From NCBI GenBank assembly GCA_037200005.1, contig JBBCGY010000001.1, positions 1,631,103 to 1,695,102 on the forward strand: DNA of 64,000 nt. The letters are read 5' to 3'. Each line of letters starts with the position of its first letter. Position 1 is the first letter of the stretch. Shown here one piece after another: positions 46,937 to 64,000 of this stretch. Below the pieces are notes generated by a model. It searched no databases and had not been told where the DNA came from. It saw nothing but the letters and a program-made list of their open reading frames with translations. Made by a program: the position numbers and the translations under genes. The DNA comes from Alphaproteobacteria bacterium (GTDB lineage Bacteria; Pseudomonadota; Alphaproteobacteria; UBA9219; RFNS01).

Positions 46937-47026
46937 GGAGAGGTGGCCGAGTGGTTTAAGGCGCTCGCCTGGAAAGCGGGTGTACTGTAACAGGTACCGT
47001 GAGTTCGAATCTCATCCTCTCCGCCA
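46937..47026 (+). tRNA. tRNA-Ser, anticodon GGA, with encoded CCA
   Basis: The acceptor stem ggagagg (46937-46943) pairs with cctctcc (47016-47022), followed by the discriminator G and an encoded CCA. D-loop ggccgagtggtttaag, anticodon stem-loop cgcctGGAaagcg, an enlarged class II variable arm (tgtactgtaacaggtaccgt) and T-loop gttcgaatc identify it as tRNA-Ser. It marks the left boundary of the accessory region; tRNA-Ser genes are common integrase targets. Confidence 0.96.
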
Positions 47027-51886: not shown

Positions 51887-52469
51887 CTAAGAGACTCTAG
51901 AACGGTTCCGCCCTACTTTAACAATCATCCATGGAAATACAATTTCACGAGGCATACGCCCGCTGAATCGATATCCAGTATTCTTGATATGCCAAGCATT
52001 AGCCCCATTCTTTCCCATTCCAGGGAGTGTAAATTGTTTTCTTTCATTTCTAAGATTGAATTCAAATCCAAGCGCCCATATCAGCAAATGCTCTATCTCT
52101 TCCATAGCCTTGTCAATCCGTTTGAGTTTATCACGATGTGTAATGAAATCGATTGGAGCATAGCTAAACTCCGTTCTTCCTCTCTTTTTAGCTATGGACC
52201 GCGCCTTTTCATGATTTCCAAAACGAGTTTCAGGAGAATTTGTAAGGCCTACATAGACAATATTATTTTTGGTCCTATATCGACCATGATTGCGGATAAG
52301 GGCATATATGAACGGCTCTTTGGTATTAAACTGAGGAGTATTTTTACCTCTTTCCCATACAGTAGGCCTTAGACCACTCAAGCTCCGCTATCTTATATAA
52401 GGGGTTTCCTACAGCATTCTGAATTTCGGAAGGCTTTTCACACCAATCGGCAATCCTATATCCTCTCAT
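51887..52469 (-). CDS. GIY-YIG-like nuclease-domain protein (one frameshift)
   Basis: About 194 aa. A perfect SD (ggaggt) precedes the ATG at 52469 (MRGYRIADWCEKPSEIQNAV). One base change near 52380 joins it to the main frame, which reads PFIYALIRNHGRYRTKNNIVYVGLTNSPETRFGNH: the order IYAL ... VYVGLT ... R-F-x-N-H is that of a GIY-YIG fold, and AMEEIEHLLIWAL may provide the metal-binding Glu. The family member is divergent. It lies 85 nt downstream of the reverse transcriptase gene on the same strand, so the two are likely co-transcribed. Confidence 0.6.
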
Positions 52470-52554: not shown

Positions 52555-53803
52555 CTATATATCCATTGCCGCAAGTTCACGCTCAAAGGCCTTTTCTATC
52601 CGCCGAATTTGGCGAACAATATTTGTGTTGCCTCCAAAAGCCTGATCACTACGCCGAGCATAAGAAGAGAAATTACGAAACTGAAGAGAGGAAAATCGGC
52701 GACGCAATTTCTTCGTATAAACCTTCCCAGATTTTCCCCATTGTTGCTGACGCTTGAGCTGCCTTTTTGGCTTTTTTGATGCCCCGTTTCATCTTGCGCC
52801 ACTGGTTGGACAATGAAGACGGCCTCAAGCCTGCACCTCCTGGATAATAGCAAAACCCAAGATATTGAGCAGACCTCTCCGAATTACCAACTACGGCGTG
52901 GCCATTGAATAAGGTGCGTTTCTGTTTTAGCTTCGCTAAGAACGAGCCTTTCAGCAGCAATATATTGGGAAATCTTCTCTTCCATTTAACGGAAATCTCC
53001 GAAGGACATATTATCAGGATGTCGTCGGAATAGCGCCGATAGAAAGCACCCATCGAATTACATATATCACGCACCTTACAATCAAAATCAGTCATATATA
53101 GATTAGAAAAAGTGGCACTTATCGGAGTCCCCTGCGGGATACCGGCCCCTTGTTTCAATATTGGGATGGAACACTACGCCAGCTTCCTTTAGTTCAGCAA
53201 CGGTGGCTATAGGTAAGTTCCAGGCCTTGCCATAGCTTCCTTAAACAAAGGATGCACTCTTAGGTCTTCCCGGTTGACATAATGATAGGCTGTAACAGAC
53301 CGGAAAACACGCAGCCAATCTTCGGAAAGGCTTGTGACCCCCAAGACGTTTTTCAGCCGGTATTTTAGAAGCTTGTGATCGAGATTATCAAAAAATCCGG
53401 AAACATCGAACGCGAGTATCATGCAAGGCGCATGCTGTAACGCATATTTGTATGCTTCAGCGGAGAAATGATAATTCGCTTTTCCTAAAGTCCTGTAGGC
53501 TACGATCGCTTCCTGAAGCCCTTGTTGAGCATAGAAATCATCAAGCAGAATATTAACGTGGTGCGCATAATAGGAAAGAATACAAGCGTCACGATGCGAG
53601 GCATACATAATGGGCCTGGGCTTCTTGAGGGTCTTATGCTCTTGGGGCTTATACCTTTTGACGCCCTGCATATAGTGGATTAGGGGGCTAAAGGAATGCC
53701 GAGCAACAAAGTCCGGCTTTGTGACCCGGAGAAGGAAATCCTCCGCGACCGGGCGGTCAAAATGCTTGTAATGCCTGGGGCGGTACCAAATCGGATCGTT
53801 CAA
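52555..53803 (-). CDS. Reverse transcriptase of the bacterial defence (DRT/unknown group) type, several frameshifts
   Basis: About 416 aa when frames are bridged. RT motifs in order: KPRPIMYASHRDACILSYYA; ILAFDVSGFFDNLDHKLLKYRL (motif A, catalytic Asp); GAGIPQGTPISATFSNLYM (motif B); GAFYRRYSDDILIIC (motif C, YSDD in place of YADD); ERLVLSEAKTET (motif D region); YLGFCYYPGG; and a basic thumb ending RQIRRIEKAFERELAAMDI. Frame changes lie near 53215, 53150, 52960, 52900 and 52710. No group II intron maturase domain or retron VTG motif was recognised, so a DRT/abortive-infection type RT is the best reading. The start is a TTG at 53803 after a gggggggg-agatta tract. A folded RNA-like segment lies directly upstream and a GIY-YIG gene downstream. 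Confidence 0.8.
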
Positions 53804-54098
53804 TAATCTCCCCCCCCGGAGTTCGCAGAGTTCGGAGAATTAGCCCTGACCCTGGGCCCTCCTCCCTGAGAAGGGAGAAGACATCCTCCGAACGCACGCC
53901 ACCTTCCGCCAGTCTATATCCAGGCTTGTCATCCCGAACCTTCACTAACGCGGGTCTAAAAACGCGAGGTGGTATTATGTAACCAATGGAGGTCCGAGTG
54001 CTACTCGTCATCTTGTCTTCAAGGCTCACGGTCTTCGCGGTGCGATTCTGCGCCACGGCGTCCGCGATTAACTTTCGACTTGACGTTCTCAACGGTCA
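53804..54098 (-). ncRNA. Candidate structured RNA upstream of the reverse transcriptase
   Basis: On the RT-coding strand the 295 nt before the RT start contain a long hairpin: outer perfect 8 bp stem gttcggag/ctccgaac (53886-53893 with 53830-53837) enclosing a second perfect stem ctccct/agggag with a 4 nt loop (53872-53877 with 53862-53867) and G/C-rich flanks (gggcccagggtcagggc). No well-formed protein gene fits here; one frame is open (about 53757-54098) but reads as low-quality protein. Retron and several DRT families place their template RNA exactly here. Transcription is not shown by the sequence. Confidence 0.45.
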
Positions 54099-54424
54099 GA
54101 CCGCTTGGCCATTTCCAAGCGGCATTTCTCATGTGGTGTTGACGCCCCAAAGCTTCAAGAGGAAGTGTTATTTTTTCTTAGATTATTCCTTTCGCTCCAC
54201 GCATTTTGTTTCGGTTCAGAAATGATACATGTATTCTATGGAATCTATGAACCAAATACGAACCCCGCCGCCGCTTCGCATTGGCAATGGATAGGATTGA
54301 TGAGCGGCTTGGGGGCGTTGGTTTCGTTGATGGCGGCCAGGATGAAGGCAACCTCTGGCTCATTAGTTGAAAAAGGCCCACTTGTTCGGCATGGTGGAGG
54401 ATGGACAACCCAGTACGGATTATC
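53804..54424. other. Segment without confident protein-coding gene
   Basis: Between the RT gene (minus) and the XRE gene (plus). The left half holds the candidate structured RNA. The right half (54105-54506, plus) has an open frame of 133 codons with one hydrophobic stretch (WIGLMSGLGALVSLMAARM) that overlaps the XRE start. I could not decide whether it is real; divergent promoters must also lie here. Confidence 0.4.
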
Positions 54425-54739: not shown

Positions 54740-56475
54740 CATTCTGCGCCGACATCAAAATGAACTCACCTTTTGTAGAGCACTCATCGACAAAGAGCTT
54801 CCACTATACCTACCAAGTGAGATTAGAACACTACTTACCCAGCTCGACGCTGACCATCGAGGACTATGCTATCGGTAGCGCATATGCGCTTCTGATTGGG
54901 GATAAGAAGCGCAAAGAGTTGTCAGCTTATTCACACCACCAGCGTTGGCCCAAGCTGTTTTGAATGCAGCATATCCTTATTTAAACCGCATTGCACCGCG
55001 AGTGCTTGATCCTTCATGTGGTGGGGGCTCGTTTATAACGCCGGTGGCTCGCCATCTAATTGAAAAGCAACAACGCACCGGCACGAATATGTCATTTGCG
55101 GTTTCTCGCACGCTGGCCACTTTAAATGGCATAGAGGTAGATGCAGGCCTTGCCGCCCTGTCTCAATCGCTCTTGCTGTCGATGTTAAAGCGTGAGTTCG
55201 ACTATGCTCACAAGGGTCGGCTTAACGTCGTGCGATGCGCGAATGCGCTTACTATATCGTTAGATGCCTCTTTTGATCTGATCATTGGAAATCCGCCATA
55301 CGGCAAAGTTTTTCCGATTTCTCTTCATCAATTCTCAAGCACGCGGGGCGCGCAAATATCGGAGGTCATACCAACCTCTATTCTCTGTTCCTGCTTCGCA
55401 GTTTGAATTGGCTGAAGCCGAGCGGCGGCCTTGTCTTTGGTGATCCCCACAAGCTTTGTGGCAGGTCCATACTTTTCGGGACTTCGAGAAGAGATACTTG
55501 CACGCGCAAATGTCGTGAGCATCGATCTACATGAGCAACGAGATAACTTATTCTTGGGTGCCGTTCAGGATATCTGTTGCTCACCCTGCAACGTCACAAG
55601 AGCGAGCAGAAAAAAGCAACATCGCATACCTACGAACTTGGCTATATTGATGCCAAACGGCGTGAGGCGTACTGTTGGACGTTCGGAAACTCGATCTGGC
55701 GGTGAACCTTGGATGCTTCCCGCCGCAAGCGAGGTCAAGGTGTTCGTCAGCAAGCGTGATGACGCGCCGGAGCGTGCAGCACGCACCTTTACGCTTCAGG
55801 ATTACGGGTATGATGTGCGGGTAGGAAAAGTCGTGCCTACGCGCGAACGCGAAGATTTGCACGAGACCAAAGAGAATAGAGATATAGCGCTGGTCTGGGC
55901 GTCTGCGATCCGACCAGATGCATCCTTCGATCACCGCGCCGCAAAGCGCTTAGGGAACGCAATCTGGTATGGCGGATCACCTGGAACCCCAACCAAACGT
56001 CCAGCAGTTCTGGTTCAGCGAACCAGCAACAGAGATCAGAGGCGTAGGCTCAATGCCGCCGCTGTCCCAAAAGAGTTTTTGACACAGCAGCGCAATGGCT
56101 TTGTAGCGGAAAACCACGTCATTGTGTTGGAATCCCGCAGCAACAAACCGAAGATCGCCTCACGGATGTTGGCAGAGCTTCTGAACTCTGGGCCGGTTAA
56201 TGAGCGCTTTGCCACTGGTATCAGGGAGCTTCACGGTATCGGCGAAACTATTGCAGCGTCTCGCGCTCCCCGATCCGAAACTGATTAAACAACTACCTCA
56301 GATCAACAAGGAGCATGAACTCAGAAAACTCTTTGCGACATTCCCAGACATTCTTTCGGCGTCGCAGTCAGATGGCCTTCGCGACGCGAAGAACGCCGTC
56401 AACAAGACGAGCAACTTGAATAGCGGCGCGGCCATCGACGATAAACCCCGCCTCAAGAGACGTTCCATCTCCTGA
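54678..56475 (+). CDS. Eco57I/TaqI-type N6-adenine DNA methyltransferase (several frameshifts)
   Basis: About 540-590 aa. An N-terminal helical segment (KDFFSYVRVERNSILRRHQN) leads to IGSAYALLIGDKKRKELSAYF and then, in the next frame, motif I VLDPSCGGGSFITPVARHL, NGIEVDAGL (motif II), and motif IV IIGNPPYGKV. Later come VIPTSFVAGPYFSGLREEIL, QRHKSEQKKATSHTYELGY, and the target-recognition region. GSFTVSAKLLQRLALPDPKLIKQL near 56230-56290 is the normal C-terminal block of these enzymes, so the protein continues past the TGA at 56286; the exact end is uncertain and overlaps antisense drmC. At least five frame changes (near 54865, 54925, 55310, 55440, 55570) are needed. It modifies adenine in DNA and is convergent with the DISARM core. 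Confidence 0.75.
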
Positions 56476-57214
56476 ACCTTGAATATTCGCGGAACCGACG
56501 TAGGCCAAGCCATCATCTGCTAGCACGATTTTTGCGTGGAATGTCTCGATCGGTAGTGCGCGACCCGCTGCAGGAGGGTGCGACATGTGATAGTCGTGAA
56601 TGGATATCTGCAGTGCCTGTAACCAGTGCGAGTGCTCGATTCCAATTTCGACGGAGTACTTGCTCACGTCTCGAAGCACCAATATGCGGCTAACGCTCGC
56701 AGCAGACGAAGCGAAAATCATTTGGAGCCATTCGAATCCACGGTCCAAAAATGGAGTCATAACTACAAGCCTGGAACGCGCAGACATCGCCACCCGTTCT
56801 AAGGCGGTACGAGTTGCAAGGTAACCACCAGGTCTACCGAGTGCCCCAGGAAGCTCGCCTTGAAGGAAACTTGGTGACATCGGCATCGTGACCGCAAATT
56901 TCCAGATTCGGCACTTCCACGCGCAACCGTCTGAAGTGCTCTGCACCCCGCAGTACACTCGAAAGGCGTAATAGTTCATCCCTGTTGAGCGATGTGGACC
57001 AGACTGTTTCATCGGCGCTTGCGGTGCAAATGCCCGCTAACGCGAGTCCCTCCAACACTTGGGCCCCTTCACCTGCGTTCAGACCAGACACTGAGGCACA
57101 AAGTCGCTCAATTGCCCAAGTGCCTCCGCCAAGCCCTACCCATGCTTCCAACAGTTGCGCGGCAAGGCCGGGCCACGGAGAAGCACAACGCACAACGTCG
57201 GCATCGTTCGGCAT
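56368..57214 (-). CDS. drmC: DISARM protein DrmC, phospholipase D-like nuclease (one frameshift)
   Basis: About 281 aa. The N-terminal half is helical (LAAQLLEAWVGLGGGTWAIE, LNAGEGAQVLEGLALAG); the C-terminal half is a PLD fold with SRLVVMTPFLDRGFEWLQ and the HKD motif FHAKIVLADDGLAYVGSANI, followed by SLEAGFIVDG. Frame changes near 56890 between VEVPNLEICG and MPMSPSFLQGELPG. DrmC is the non-essential PLD-family member of DISARM. Its ATG overlaps the drmB stop as TAATG, indicating one operon. Confidence 0.8.
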
Positions 57215-59413
57215 TATCGGTCTCCGACCGCACCATCAATTGCGCGAAGTTCACGGACGATCTCAAAATAACCCTTTATTGGCGTTTCGTTGATATCCCA
57301 AAGAGGCGCCCTTCCACCGATTAGTGCTGCGCGCGAAAGAAGTTGGTTGCCTGCGATGCATGACGTTTCGGGAATCATAACGCACGCAGGACATGCGCCG
57401 CCACGGTGATCGCATAGGCTGCCTGAGCCGCATCTAAGCTCACGACGATCAACAAGGTAGTGCAAAAACGCACTGTTATGATCTCGCCACATCGAAGAGA
57501 TGTTGCCGAGATCTTCGGTCATGCCTCGACGATGAACGACGAAGGCTAAATCCGCTGGGAAAATGGCTTCGCTCATGGAGCCCCAAATCGAGTCCAGAAA
57601 ACCGTGCAATGCCCTGCATAACGTGGTGCGACATCGTGTGAAGCAGTAGATAGATCATAGAGGACACATCCCGTGACCGTTCACGCGATGCCGGATCTCG
57701 AATGCCAAAGTCCTGTAAAAAGGGGGTAAAGTCCTGATACGTTTCGATGAGTTCCGCACCAATGGATCGAGAGCCAGAGGGTGGTGCTGCAAGCGCGCCA
57801 TTTTGGATCAGGAATTGAAGCGCGGCATCCCGCTCAAGGCGAACATAGATGGCCTCGTTCTGCTGCTCGATAACATAGATGGGGCGCCTGTGACTCGGCA
57901 GCGGCGGAATCCCATCAAACGGACCGGCATAGGGCGATCCTTTTGTATCGTTGTCGGTCCCGCTGAAACTCGACTGAATCCAAAGGAGAACTCGACCATG
58001 TCCAGATTTCTGATTAGCAGCGCGTCTTGTATCCCCGCGCGTCGCAGAGCACGTGCTACGCGCGTCTCGTACACTGCTTGAAGGTCTTGGTTTCCGTACT
58101 CGGCGCAAAGGTCGGGGTGCGCAGTGCGCAGGTCGCTCGCCTGCGAGGGAACCTCTACTTTCCTTCTCCGAAGAGCATCATGCTCAACCGTACTACGCAT
58201 TGGATCATATCGCTTGGCAAAGTCTCGGCGTGCGGCGACCTGTGAGATCAGTGCGGGAGATGCGTTGACTTCGCGCAAGACATCGCCAGAGCTATACCAG
58301 CTTTCAAGTGTCATGCCTGCCGCTTGGCCAAAGGCATCCGCTTGCGCAACATTCCCATTTTGCCGGGCGGCTAGTTCCTGTTGGCGCAACATTTCGTAAG
58401 GCGGCCAAAGTGCGGCACGTCCCTTTGCCGTTAGTTGCTCCTTGATCCTTTTGTCGCTGGGATCGGCTCCTCCATAGCCATGGAGTGAAGCGACCTTTGA
58501 GGCTAAGTCCGCACGGCGGTTTTCATGCATAAGAGCAACCACTTCGGGGTCTGCGTCATAGACAATGAAACGAGCCGATTGCACGTAGAAAACCGGCGAG
58601 GCGCGATAGGAGACCGGAACCATATTGATCTCACTCCACTGATGGGGCGATCCTTGGTCCATACGCGTCTTGAGCAGGTTCAGACTAAACGGATCGGTCT
58701 GGAAAACCTCGCGCTCTGCTTTGCAGCCAGAGCATCGGAAGCGCCACAACGAAAACCGGTTGCCACGCTTCGTTAGGCGGAAGTCATCGACGCCGCATTG
58801 GCATCTAGGAATCTTCCGAATCTCTCCATCCCCACCAACCGTGTACCTGTAGGGAGACAAGCCTTCGAGCCCGCCTGACCAATGCACGTAAATGACATCA
58901 AGCTGTTTCCACGACACTCAGAATGCCCCTCCGCAGGGCATCGGGTCGGAAGCGGCTCCGCGATCTGGTGCGCACAGGACACGTATTCTTGAAGCCGCTC
59001 GCAGTGGTCACAGCGATACACTAACGGGCCCGGCAAATAGCCCATCCGATCGGGCCGCATGAGCTGGAAGGTATCCAATCCAATCTCAATCCCTGCCACC
59101 CCGGCGCGCATTGGATTGAAGAAGCATGTGTCAAGCAGCTGAAGCTCATAGACCGGGGCATCCCGCTGAATGGAAAGCCACGCGCCAACCAGCTTTGGCA
59201 GAATTCTTCCAAATTTTCGATGATCTGGTCCCGGCGAGTAGGTCTCGCGCTGAAATCTATCTCGCCACTTTCTACGGGGACGGCAATGCAAGCGCCTTTT
59301 CCACCCTCCCATGTAAACATCGCGCCGGGCGCGTAAGACGTCGCGAGTTGGGGCTGCGAACGGCTCATGCGTGGAGGATACAGACGGGCTGAAGGTGCGT
59401 TGTCGTCTGCCAT
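57214..59413 (-). CDS. drmB: DISARM protein DrmB, DUF1998 domain (several frameshifts)
   Basis: About 730 aa bridged. The start ATG at 59413 has ggagg 9 nt upstream. The N-terminal DUF1998 entry RMSRSQPQLATSYAPGAMFTW is characteristic; a Cys-rich zinc-binding part follows (YRCDHCERLQEYVSCAHQ; PRCQCGVDDF, FRCSGCKAERE). The C-terminal DUF1998 block is MIYLLLHTMSHHVMQGIARF, SMSEAIFPADLAFVVHRRG, and GSGSLCDHRGGACPACVMIPETSCIAGNQLLSRAALIGG. DrmB pairs with the DrmA helicase and is essential for DISARM. Frame changes lie near 59090, 58900, 57990 and 57600. Confidence 0.85.
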
Positions 59414-59414
59414 T

Positions 59415-59658
59415 TTATCTATCCTCCACGTCGATTGGCGCGGGGTCTGCATCGACTTCAGATCGAGATGCTGATCGCTGTCCGCGAATTATTTTCATGA
59501 CTTGCCGCACCGCTTCCAAATGGACGTTACGGACGCCGCAGGGGGTCGTGCACCGAGCCGAGAATAACTCCTCCGGCATCGACGTCTCTGAGCGACGTCA
59601 TTGGTTTGCGCAAAGTGGGCGTTTCGATGCTCGCCAGAATTTTGAAAGCTGACTGGAG
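59415..59658 (-). other. Possible C-terminal continuation of DrmA behind an in-frame TGA
   Basis: After the DrmA stop (TGA, 59661-59659) the same frame continues open: LQSAFKILASIETPTLRKPM, TSLRDVDAGGVILGSVHDPL. After one frame change near 59530 it reads RNVHLEAVRQVMKIIRGQRS to a TAA at 59417-59415 that ends two bases before drmB begins. Either a substitution created the TGA, or a separate small ORF of about 60 aa lies here (ATG at 59598). Confidence 0.4.
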
Positions 59659-62600
59659 TCAGAGCGATAAGTGAAACGCTGCACCAACGCCCAACACGCG
59701 ATCTTCCACGAAGCGCCTGTAGTGATCGACATGTGTCGTGGCTCCGATGCCGTTTACACCGCGCCCATCCACCCCGATTGCTTCAAGAGCGAACTCGGTG
59801 ATTGCCGCGACTGCCTTAGTGTAGCCGCTCCCGGAATAGTTTTCCGCCAGGCCTTGATTGCGCTTGCGGTGGTGAATGTGCGCGCCCGGTCTTTCGCATT
59901 GTCTGTGGCAGCCGCGAATAGATCTTGCTCGACGACTCCGCAAAGAAATGCCTGGAATACGCTAGGCAGAACGCGCTGAATGGCTCGGTCGGCCCACCGC
60001 TGCACGGCAGGTGGAGGGATCATACGCTCCAGAAAGCGATGGAACTGATCGTGCGTCTCGACAACGTACCGATCTCGACGGCTATGCGGCGTCGGCACAA
60101 AGATGCTGAAGCCGACATGCGTTCGCCCAACTCGACTGGATGCTTGAATGTATTCAGCGATATCTGAAGGCATGCCAGCGAAGAACATCGCGTTGAATTT
60201 ATCTACATCGACGCCGTGGCTAATGGCCGAGGTCGCTACGATATTGCGCAGCACATCTCCAAGTCCAGGAAAGTCTTGGCCGGAAACCGTATCGCTTTCC
60301 GCACGGGCCATAACGTCCTGAATTTCTGCCGTAGTGACGCCCCCAGAAATCAAGTCTGTTGTGAACGCAAGTTCAGCAATGCCGTCGCTGCACTGATCAC
60401 GTTCTACCTGCGCCGCGAGTGTCTCAATGATTTGGTCGCCGCCTTTTTTGTTCGTGACGTATGTCAGCGAAATTCGCAGCAGATCAATAAGTGTCGCCAA
60501 TTCATTTAGCCCGTCCGGGCGAGCCAATAGTTGAGCTAGCGCCGCCTGCCTCAATGGCGTTACGGGCGGTCGTCGGCGCGCAGGACGGAGCTAAGTCTTT
60601 TAACGGCTTCGTTGGCTTGTCCGTTTTGTAGAAGCCTCCACAACCGCGTTACAGACAAATGGTAAGCTGAAACGACGGCCGAAGTCGTCATCGTGTGTGA
60701 ACGACCATTAGTCATGATCGACACATAAGTGCGCATGCGCGGCGCAGTCTTTTCTGGCTTTAGACGGGCCGGAGTTGTCTGCGCTAGCTCAGCTCGCGCG
60801 GTGTTTCGAGGCACTCTTGGTGAGGCGTAGAAAGACTCATATAGGTTGGGGCCTGGATACGGAAAGCGAAGCGGTTCACGCTGGTAGAGTACGCGGAGCT
60901 GCCGATCGGGATCAGAAATCGTCGCAGTCGCGGCAATCACTTTAGCAAGGCGCGGTCTGCCTGGTGAGGATGAGTCCGCTGGCCACTTAGCGACCTGCTT
61001 GGAAAGCACGCCTTGGCCCAACGCAAGAAGTATACGCTCCAGCGTGGTTTCAAACAATCCTGAGAATGTGCCTAAGCTCTCGTCCAGCAAGTGCCCTTCG
61101 TCTTGAATGATGAGGCTGGGGAACGGGTCATGGAACACCATGCTCCCCTGAACAAAGGCTGGCTGAAGTCGTGTCCATCCGTCGTCTTCGGCCTTTGCAA
61201 GTGCCTGCCTACCTCTCGGCGAGAAAAGATGCTTGCTTTGCGGATCCATGTACCGCGCAACGCCAAGCATCCCGGCAATTTGATTGATCGTGCGATCATG
61301 CTGGCCCAACAGCGCCAGTTTATCGATCGTGCCTAAAACGACGGAAGGCGCTCGCTGATAAATGGTGTCATCAGTCAAGATGAACGGAAGCGGCTCACGG
61401 TGCGGTGACGGTGGGTTTAATTTGTTCCAATCACAGCCCTGATCGTTGAAACAAACGATCCCAATACGGCCATGTTGCGCCGGGTATTTTCGCATACCGG
61501 TCACATGGCCACAGCACGGACACTTGCGAAGTTTGTCGTAGGACTCCAGCGCTTCAATATACTTTGCTGACCGACGTCGTGCTTTCTCTGCAACCTCAGT
61601 GTCGTCTGAAGGCGGATTAAGGAGAGAATGATCAGTCGCATGCGCGGCGACGGTTATAAGCGGTACGCCGCCGAAACCTTGCGCGGCGCGATTGGGCGTA
61701 TTTCCCGATCCGACCCAAAAGCCCAATTCGAATGGCCAACCGGCGAGTTTGTGTCGAAGCCGTACAAGCTCGGCGTTGACGAGAATCCGCATTAAGCGAC
61801 GTGCTTGTTGCAGCGTTAGAAGACGTAGCGGGTAACGGACAAGCGCCGTGACGCCTCGCGCTTTTCCACGGTAACGGTCGAAAAACAGATTGTATATTAA
61901 CAAGCCAAAGAAGGCCTCTGATTTTCCGCCGCCAGTCGCAAAATACAAAAGGCTCGCGGATAATTCGTCCCGCTGTTCGTCAAACTCTTGCGGTATCTCT
62001 CTCGACACGAGTGTCGGGATATGCGCCAAAATGAACGCCAACTGGAAGAGGCGCCAGTCCGTGAACTTCGAACCGCCATACGCTGCGAAAGCCTCGTTTG
62101 TCCGAAGCCATGCTTCGTAGGGTACAGCTAGCTTTTGCAACCGCGCGCTCTCTTGGGTGTCCTTGGCAGTCTGGAGCTCTCTAGAGCTAACTTGGGCACG
62201 CCTCAGAAGTTCAATTCCCGATCGAATATGTCCAGCTTCTTTTCGATATGCCGCGATATCTTTTGCATGAGCCGTACGCTCGGTGTCAGCAAGGTCTTCC
62301 GGAAGAGCGGCGCCTACGTCCACGTCTGCCTGCGCCTTGATCCACGCCTCGTACGCAGTGGGCAACGCCAGCAAATCTTCCAGCGGCGTAGCTTCGGAAG
62401 ACAACGCTGTATAGGACGTTGGCATGCCCGCAATACTTGTTGGATCGATACGCGGCTGATGGTATTTCGGCGTCCACGTGGTCGCCAAATGCACTACGGT
62501 CTCAACAGACTCGCATTGGCGTACCCCGCAGTTCAACCCCATCGCCGGATAAGTCAGCCAATCTGCAAATCTGTATGAAGGCCGCACCCGATCCAAGTTA

Positions 62601-64000
62601 AGTGACTTATGCAATGCCGTCGGCACTAAAGCGTCGAGTTGTACTTGAAAGATTGCATGCTCGAATGCATTGGCGTCCCGCCCAGAAGGAAGCGCTGCAT
62701 CGTTCTGAATAGCCAGCCGTACGTTTGCACGACTTTCATCAACATAGTCTTCGGCAATGTCTATTATTAACTTGAGGCCGGTGAGCGTTGGCTTAACATC
62801 ATCAACGACCGCCACTCGACGCGTCCTTAAGGCAGTTAGGTACCGATTCCACGATTCTTCGGTCGCGAAGTTGCTGGGCAGGACGCGCTCGTTAGGGCGA
62901 TACGCGTTGTTTTGGCCGGCTTCGGATGCAAGCCATGCCACTATTTTATCTTGAACATCCGCAGCCAGTTTCTGCTCAAACTCATCCATTGCGGACTGCT
63001 GAGAATCAGGATCGCCGACATCGAATTCGATAGCTCCGAGAGAAAGCGGAATTTTACGCCACTTCTGCGGAATTTGTTGAGGCGCAGCAAAGTTGTCAGC
63101 GATGCTTCCGGCATCTTGTCTGAGTGGCATCAATGCCCCGGAAGCAGGCGGCGGTCCTTCTTCTTGTTCTGCTTGTTCCGATGGCGACGGAGTTTCGGCG
63201 GTCGCGCCAGCCTCAGCCGAGTCCTCGACGCCCAGTTCGGTCACATCGCTGTTCGGAAGGTCAACAATATCGTTCGATTCAATTGGCCTAGCAACTGCAC
63301 CCGTGCGCGCATCCACCAAATTTATTCCGAGTTCACGGAACGCCTGATCGAACGCGGCTTTGCGGATCGCGGAGATTGCTTCCACGCGGCGCTCACGCGC
63401 TTCACTGCGATCTGCTCCTTGTCGTTGATAGGCGCGAGCCGAACGATCTGCTCTCTCTAAAGCCTCAGCCGCAGCTCTGGCAATGCCCTTGCTGTCCGGC
63501 GTCTCTGCATCACCGACCTGACGGGATTCTTCGGACATATCTGCCGCTTCATGACTGACTTCGGCACGAACTATTGCCTCTCCAGCTTTTTCCAGGTCCT
63601 CATCTGCCGGAAGTGGCGGGCAGCTCGCCAATTTGCTCTTGAATGAGGTCGCGAGCACGTTGCTCCACGCGCTGTCGCGTCTCCCGCGAGAGCTGCACGG
63701 GCGGCATCATGTCGTTGTCTGGGCTTGATATCTCCTCCCATGAAGGCAACTCGCGAACGTAAATCGCGAGCTGTGGTCGCAGCTCAATCGATCCAGATTG
63801 ATTGGAGTGGACCTGCAGATCCATGCCCATTGTCGCGATATGGATATCACTGGTGTCGTCCTCACCAGCTTGATCGTATCGCGGCAGGAGGAAGCCGCTC
63901 ACCAACTTCGACGACGGGCGAGCGCCGAGCATAACATCACCTTCAGGGCTGCTTCCGACGCACTTCTGCTCGGTCAGGCCAAGGAGGCCTTCAACGATTG
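59659..64000 (-). CDS. drmA: DISARM helicase DrmA (several frameshifts; 5' end beyond right edge)
   Basis: At least 1440 aa. N-terminus beyond the window; first visible residues IVEGLLGLTEQKCVGSSPEG, then ARPSSKLVSGFLLPRYD as in DrmA starts. A charged helical linker precedes the helicase core: Walker A FATGGGKSEAFFGLLIYN (61900-61945), ALVRYPLRLLTLQQARRLMR, a zinc ribbon (KCPCCGHVTGMRK, VCFNDQGCDW), VVLGTIDKLALLGQHDR, DEAD-like SLIIQDEGHLLDESLGTFSG, ATATISDPDRQLRVLYQREP, and in the next frame NIVATSAISHGVDVDKFNAM and motif VI EYIQASSRVGRTHVGF. Frame changes lie near 63640, 60570 and 59830. Together with DrmB it forms the core complex that acts on invading DNA. Confidence 0.85.

What the first reader, a model, noticed from the sequence alone, without database searches (positions are those of the whole stretch)
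52555..54098. Reverse transcriptase with a strongly folded RNA-like leader
A DRT-like RT (motif C YSDD, no intron or retron hallmark that I can see) is preceded on the same strand by about 295 nt without a convincing gene. This segment folds into a double-stem hairpin (8 bp outer, 6 bp inner perfect stems, 53830-53893). Known from retrons and DRT families such as DRT2: a template ncRNA lies directly upstream of the RT. Inference: this is an RNA-templated anti-phage module.
Basis: partly seen in the sequence, partly recalled or inferred. Interest (0 to 1): 0.8.

Follow-up and report, generated by a model that had tools for sequence, protein, structure and literature searches.

The report
Anti-phage reverse transcriptase with hidden gene
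This is a divergent copy of a known bacterial anti-phage system (DRT2), in which a reverse transcriptase is thought to copy a neighbouring RNA over and over into a toxic gene; relatives of this copy appear to use a different three-letter signal for the repeat jump than the studied example, which helps explain how that step works.

Summary
The minus strand at 52555-53803 encodes a DRT2 reverse transcriptase and 53825-54123 its ncRNA (~299 nt). A covariance model built from ten alphaproteobacterial relatives, without the window, finds it at E=1.1e-26; 19 of 23 pairs show compensatory change; the 3' part matches Rfam RT-13 (E=1.2e-13, slightly under cut-off). The RT and its relatives form one clade (100/100) apart from K. 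pneumoniae DRT2. In all ten relatives the predicted repeat is a multiple of 3 (66-132 nt) and stop-free across junctions in one frame; seven of ten have a TTGAC-type -35 exactly 17 nt before the -10 position: the neo logic of KpnDRT2. Difference: the duplicated jump trinucleotide is GUU, not ACA; a Bacillota clade seems to use AUU. Scaffolds of the three clades match Rfam RT-13, RT-12 and RT-6. So the duplication, not its letters, appears conserved. Caveat: the window copy has at least five frame changes in the RT and a 130-nt repeat (3n+1), so it is broken as assembled; assembly error is likely in part, recent decay not excluded. Mechanism is inferred from sequence. New variant of a known kind.

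The parts
52555..53803 (-). DRT2 reverse transcriptase gene (TTG start 53803, TAG 52557-52555), readable only across at least five frame changes
   Evidence: PADLOC/NCBIfam Drt2 hits to the pieces, read-through 371.6 bits to NF041746, alignment with 10 relatives
53207..53803 (-). RT piece 1 (fingers/palm, motif A region FDVSGFFDNLDH)
   Evidence: Drt2 E 6.9e-66
52673..53158 (-). RT piece 2 (GIPQGTPIS, YSDD, QYLGF)
   Evidence: Drt2 E 1.5e-40
53811..53821 (-). Shine-Dalgarno-like G run before the RT start
   Evidence: sequence
53825..54123 (-). predicted DRT2 ncRNA, ~299 nt
   Evidence: alignment with 10 relatives; covariance model hit to its 3' part
54131..54159 (-). putative ncRNA promoter (CTTGAA, 17 nt, CCACAT) ending just before the 5' hairpin; aligned TTG in relatives
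   Evidence: sequence and alignment; weak, by eye
54101..54123 (-). 5' hairpin ('5' handle'), 9 bp stem, preserved with changed letters in relatives
53964..54093 (-). predicted template repeat, 130 nt here (3n+1; relatives 66-132, all 3n)
54091..54093 (-). jump motif 1, GUU (5' end of template; cDNA end AAC)
53961..53963 (-). jump motif 2, GUU (directly 3' of template)
54080..54085 (+). -35-like TTGACG for neo, at the far end of the template; comes 17 nt before the -10 only after a repeat junction
53973..53978 (+). -10-like TATTAT for neo
53988..54000 (+). neo ribosome-binding site GGAGG and GTG start (relatives have ATG one codon later)
53825..53979 (-). 3' scaffold found by model R1
   Evidence: 106.6 bits, E 1.1e-26, model built without the window; covariation
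53825..53899 (-). match to Rfam RT-13 RNA
   Evidence: 66.5 bits, cut-off 69.1, E 1.2e-13

Best explanation
A divergent, probably horizontally acquired DRT2 anti-phage locus. The RT binds the 3' scaffold and 5' hairpin of the RNA encoded just upstream (inferred from KpnDRT2). It copies the template from next to GUU-2 to GUU-1; the new cDNA end AAC then re-pairs with GUU-2, so copying restarts and tandem repeats form. At each repeat junction a -35 and a -10 element, out of order in the genome, come 17 bp apart and drive, on the strand antisense to the ncRNA, a stop-free repetitive gene (neo) whose product halts the infected cell. Shown here by sequence: RT family, conserved covarying RNA, duplicated motif; and in intact relatives 3n stop-free repeats with, in most, a junction promoter. 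Inferred: all biochemistry, phage triggering and toxicity. The window copy shows the same RNA, motif and promoter parts, but as assembled its repeat is 3n+1 and its RT is frameshifted.
For: Drt2 profiles; the best PDB relatives are DRT2 structures; RT clade 100/100 with ten relatives, separate from Kpn; covariance model without the window hits it at 1.1e-26, the only hit in the genome; 96.8% of pair cells kept, 19 of 23 pairs with two-sided change, slid controls 33-55% paired; Rfam RT-13; all ten relatives have 3n repeats open in the same frame (rough chance figure 1e-7 without correction for relatedness); TTGAC[AGC] in seven of the ten with 17-nt spacing to the -10 position across the junction, as published for KpnDRT2 (PMC12039810); the same scan recovers ACA in Kpn-like L029 and L030.
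Against: The window's own repeat is 130 nt and no frame stays open; the RT has at least five frame changes. The three Sphingomonas loci have weak -35 matches, L022 and L082 weak -10 matches. L023 and L002 share only GU between the two motifs. Codon-position pattern between close pairs shows no clear protein-level constraint on neo. The read-through RT is just under the NCBIfam cut-off (371.6 vs 390).
Confidence: 0.85

Rival explanations
1. The locus is a decaying, non-functional DRT2 remnant: the frame changes and the 3n+1 repeat are real mutations. (Compatible with the family assignment; concerns this copy only.)
For: Six indels in 1.55 kb, in a stretch where the neighbouring methyltransferase and DISARM-like genes are also split, while rpoB and rpoC are intact.
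Against: No stop arises except by frame change; 90 of 94 residues invariant in relatives are kept, within the range of intact relatives; catalytic motifs and RNA pairs intact; dnaE, essential, is also split by a frameshift in this assembly, so indel errors exist.
Confidence: 0.35
2. An ordinary DRT2 with a structured leader RNA, but without a neo gene: the RT does something else with the RNA (as in DRT9 or DRT10).
For: Tang et al. found Neo annotation hard in divergent DRT2 clades and left room for other mechanisms (PMC11100668); no clear codon constraint.
Against: 3n length and one open frame across the junction in 10 of 10 relatives, ribosome-binding site and ATG in most, 17-bp promoter spacing at the junction.
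Confidence: 0.1
3. Group II intron maturase or retron RT.
For: General RT homology (NCBIfam group II maturase 68.7 bits, retron St85 54.5 bits).
Against: Drt2 371.6 bits; tree; no intron RNA in Rfam searches.
Confidence: 0.01

Closest known systems
KpnDRT2 (Klebsiella pneumoniae DRT2; PMC12039810, PMC11100668; PDB 9c0i and others)
   Same: RT family; RNA directly upstream with 5' hairpin, template, folded 3' scaffold; duplicated trinucleotide at template ends; junction promoter with 17-bp spacing; 3n stop-free antisense ORF in relatives
   Different: RT only 32% identical; separate RT clade; jump motif GUU, not ACA; -35/-10 sit 8+9 nt from the junction, against 6+11 in Kpn-like loci; scaffold matches Rfam RT-13, Kpn-like loci match RT-12
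Rhizobium beringeri pRlX2 and Neorhizobium pNCHU2750c DRT2 loci (L078, L079)
   Same: 52% and 51% RT identity; same RNA; 129-nt repeats with GUU
   Different: intact frames; on conjugative plasmids
Rfam RF03017 'RT-13 RNA'
   Same: matches 53825-53899 over the full length of the model
   Different: Rfam holds only the 67-position 3' part as an sRNA; window scores 66.5, cut-off 69.1; template and 5' hairpin lie outside the model

Membership tests
DRT2 | RT of the Drt2/UG2 family by profile and tree | tested here: met
   PADLOC Drt2 best for both pieces; NF041746 best by ~300 bits; clade with Drt2-annotated L078
DRT2 | NCBIfam NF041746 curated cut-off of 390 bits | tested here: inconclusive
   371.6 bits for an approximate read-through of the broken gene; sister loci L078 and L079 score 403.7 and 404.2
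DRT2 | structured ncRNA directly upstream on the same strand | tested here: met
DRT2 | short repeat at both ends of the template that allows the jump | tested here: met
   GUU/GUU in the window and 8 of 10 relatives
DRT2 | that repeat is ACA, as in KpnDRT2 and close homologues | tested here: not met
   GUU in this clade; ACA recovered in Kpn-like L029, L030 by the same scan. Taken as a clade trait of Kpn-like systems, not as the definition of the family
DRT2 | -35 and -10 brought to 17-bp spacing at the repeat junction | tested here: met
   TTGACG-17-TATTAT in the window
DRT2 | repeat length 3n and stop-free frame across junctions (neo) | tested here: not met
   window 130 nt, no open frame as assembled; met in 10 of 10 intact relatives. 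Hence: member of the DRT2 family by RT and RNA, but not shown to be an intact system
DRT2 | concatemeric cDNA, toxic Neo, phage defence | not testable with these tools
   needs experiment
Group II intron / retron RT | intron RNA domains or msr-msd next to the RT | tested here: not met
   no Rfam intron or retron match; far lower RT scores

The most novel reading that the evidence does not exclude
DRT2 systems have split into clades, each with its own RNA scaffold (Rfam RT-12, RT-13, RT-6, for which I found no assigned role) and its own jump trinucleotide (ACA, GUU, AUU). The two copies change together, so template jumping needs their identity rather than a given sequence, and neo genes exist in divergent clades where they were hard to annotate.
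Probability: 0.6. Interest if true: 0.6.

Novelty: new variant of a known kind. Interest (0 to 1): 0.5.

Why it matters
Tang et al. reported that Neo could not easily be annotated in divergent DRT2 clades and suggested other mechanisms. Here the same logic reads out cleanly once the jump motif is allowed to differ. The clade-by-clade exchange of ACA/ACA for GUU/GUU is natural evidence for the homology-based jump model, and the link to RT-6, RT-12 and RT-13 gives orphan RNA motifs a likely role as DRT2 scaffolds. Both are directly testable with intact plasmid-borne relatives.

Tried and rejected
N-terminal extension of the RT (ORF 53757-54092): rejected, no homology, other frame. DNA-level relatives in plasmids: none. 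Relatives in viral contigs: none. Model R1 in other DRT2 clades: no significant hit, so the scaffold is clade-specific. A first structure string for pair counting was misaligned by a column and its counts are void; one search replaces it. Codon-position test for protein-level selection on neo: not supportive. Fully automatic neo scan in Bacteroidota DRT2s gave no consistent answer. More relatives in the orders of G162 and G086: none.

Full report
Observation. The minus strand 53803-52555 encodes a reverse transcriptase in several frames. Two pieces match PADLOC Drt2 at 6.9e-66 and 1.5e-40 and NCBIfam NF041746. Read across the frame changes, the 410-residue protein scores 371.6 bits to Drt2 over positions 1-416 of 416, against 68.7 for group II maturases. 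The YSDD, GIPQGTPIS and QYLGF motifs are intact. The genome holds one RVT_1 RT. Of about 95 related genomes searched, 32 of them from its family or order, only one (G086, same class) has a comparable Drt2 RT, and the surrounding stretch has 0.48-0.53 GC against about 0.61 for the left part of the window, so the locus was probably acquired.

The RNA. Upstream regions of ten alphaproteobacterial relatives (42-52% RT identity) align with 54123-53825: 5' hairpin, a variable middle, and a conserved 3' part. A covariance model of the 3' part, built from the ten relatives without the window, finds window 53979-53825 at 106.6 bits, E=1.1e-26; the next window match has E=0.67, and the whole genome has this one hit. 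On 23 pairs in four helices, 96.8% of cells pair and 19 pairs show two-sided changes; slid controls give 33-55% paired and at most 9 such pairs. Rfam RT-13 matches 53825-53899 over its full length, 66.5 bits against a cut-off of 69.1, E=1.2e-13; six of the ten relatives pass the cut-off (L082, L079, L022, L078, L025, L027).

The hidden gene. In KpnDRT2 the RT jumps between two ACA copies, giving tandem cDNA whose junctions build a promoter (17-bp spacing) and a stop-free antisense ORF, neo (PMC12039810, PMC11100668). In the present clade the corresponding places, taken from alignment columns, hold GUU. Cutting there gives repeats of 66, 114, 120, 129 (three times) and 132 (four times) nt in the ten relatives: all multiples of three, all stop-free across the junction in the same frame. 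Seven of the ten (L078, L079, L022, L023, L024, L002, L082) have TTGAC[A/C/G] at the -35 place, exactly 17 nt before the -10 place, which reads TATTGT, TATTAT, TATATG, TATATT, TATAGT, TATAAT and CATATA; the three Sphingomonas loci have weaker -35s. A rough chance figure is 1e-7, not corrected for relatedness, most of it from the multiple-of-three condition. Neo-frame substitutions between close pairs show no clear codon constraint, so the case for the frame rests on length and openness. GenBank already lists small antisense hypothetical proteins in the two plasmid loci at this place.

The window copy. It has GUU/GUU, TTGACG and TATTAT at 17-nt spacing, a GGAGG site and a GTG start, but its repeat is 130 nt, one more than a multiple of three, so no frame stays open. 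With at least five frame changes in the RT this copy would not be functional as assembled. Against old decay: 90 of 94 residues invariant in relatives are kept, inside the range of intact relatives (0.94-1.00), and no stop arises except by frame change. dnaE is split by a frameshift in the same assembly, while rpoB and rpoC are whole. Neighbouring defence genes are also split. Assembly error probably explains this at least in part; recent decay is not excluded.

Place among DRT2. The window RT and its ten relatives form one clade (100/100) apart from KpnDRT2, which groups with L029-L032. The same scan recovers ACA in L029 and L030 (6+11 nt around the junction) and AUU in the Bacillota loci L034, L037, L040 (5+12), whereas this clade has GUU (8+9). 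The scaffolds follow the clades: RT-13 here, RT-12 in L029-L032, RT-6 in L033 and L034. The main texts of the two DRT2 papers do not mention Rfam or these motifs, and I found no paper linking them; supplements and subscription papers were not searched. L032 seems to use UAGC instead of ACA, so the rule is not strict even within the RT-12 clade.

Conclusion. What is new is the clade: its RNA, its GUU jump motif, and readable neo genes in relatives. The mechanism is inferred from KpnDRT2 and from anatomy; nothing was tested in the laboratory.

Noticed in passing
window 54945-63658: Split defence genes next to the DRT2: type II-like adenine methyltransferase (54945-56288 +), DrmC-like (56368-57012 -), DrmB piece (57476-58108 -), DrmA (60560-63658 and 59754-60554 -): a DISARM-like cluster.
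   Followed up: partly
window 51887-52381: GIY-YIG domain protein directly downstream of the RT on the same strand; not found next to the two plasmid relatives.
   Followed up: no
window 46937-47023: tRNA gene at the point where GC falls from 0.60 to 0.49: likely edge of a genomic island.
   Followed up: no
G000:C1:426931-430054: dnaE split by a frameshift in the same assembly, a sign of indel errors.
   Followed up: no
L002 2825-3042: Relative with a very short predicted repeat, 66 nt (22 residues), still 3n and stop-free.
   Followed up: partly
L078 2677-2805 and L079 2686-2820: GenBank 'hypothetical proteins' antisense to the ncRNA template sit where the predicted neo frame lies.
   Followed up: partly
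L033, L034, L037, L040: Bacillota DRT2 loci with AUU/AUU at the template ends and near-perfect junction promoters; L033 and L034 match Rfam RT-6.
   Followed up: partly
L032 upstream of RT: RT-12-type locus where the best junction uses UAGC instead of ACA.
   Followed up: no
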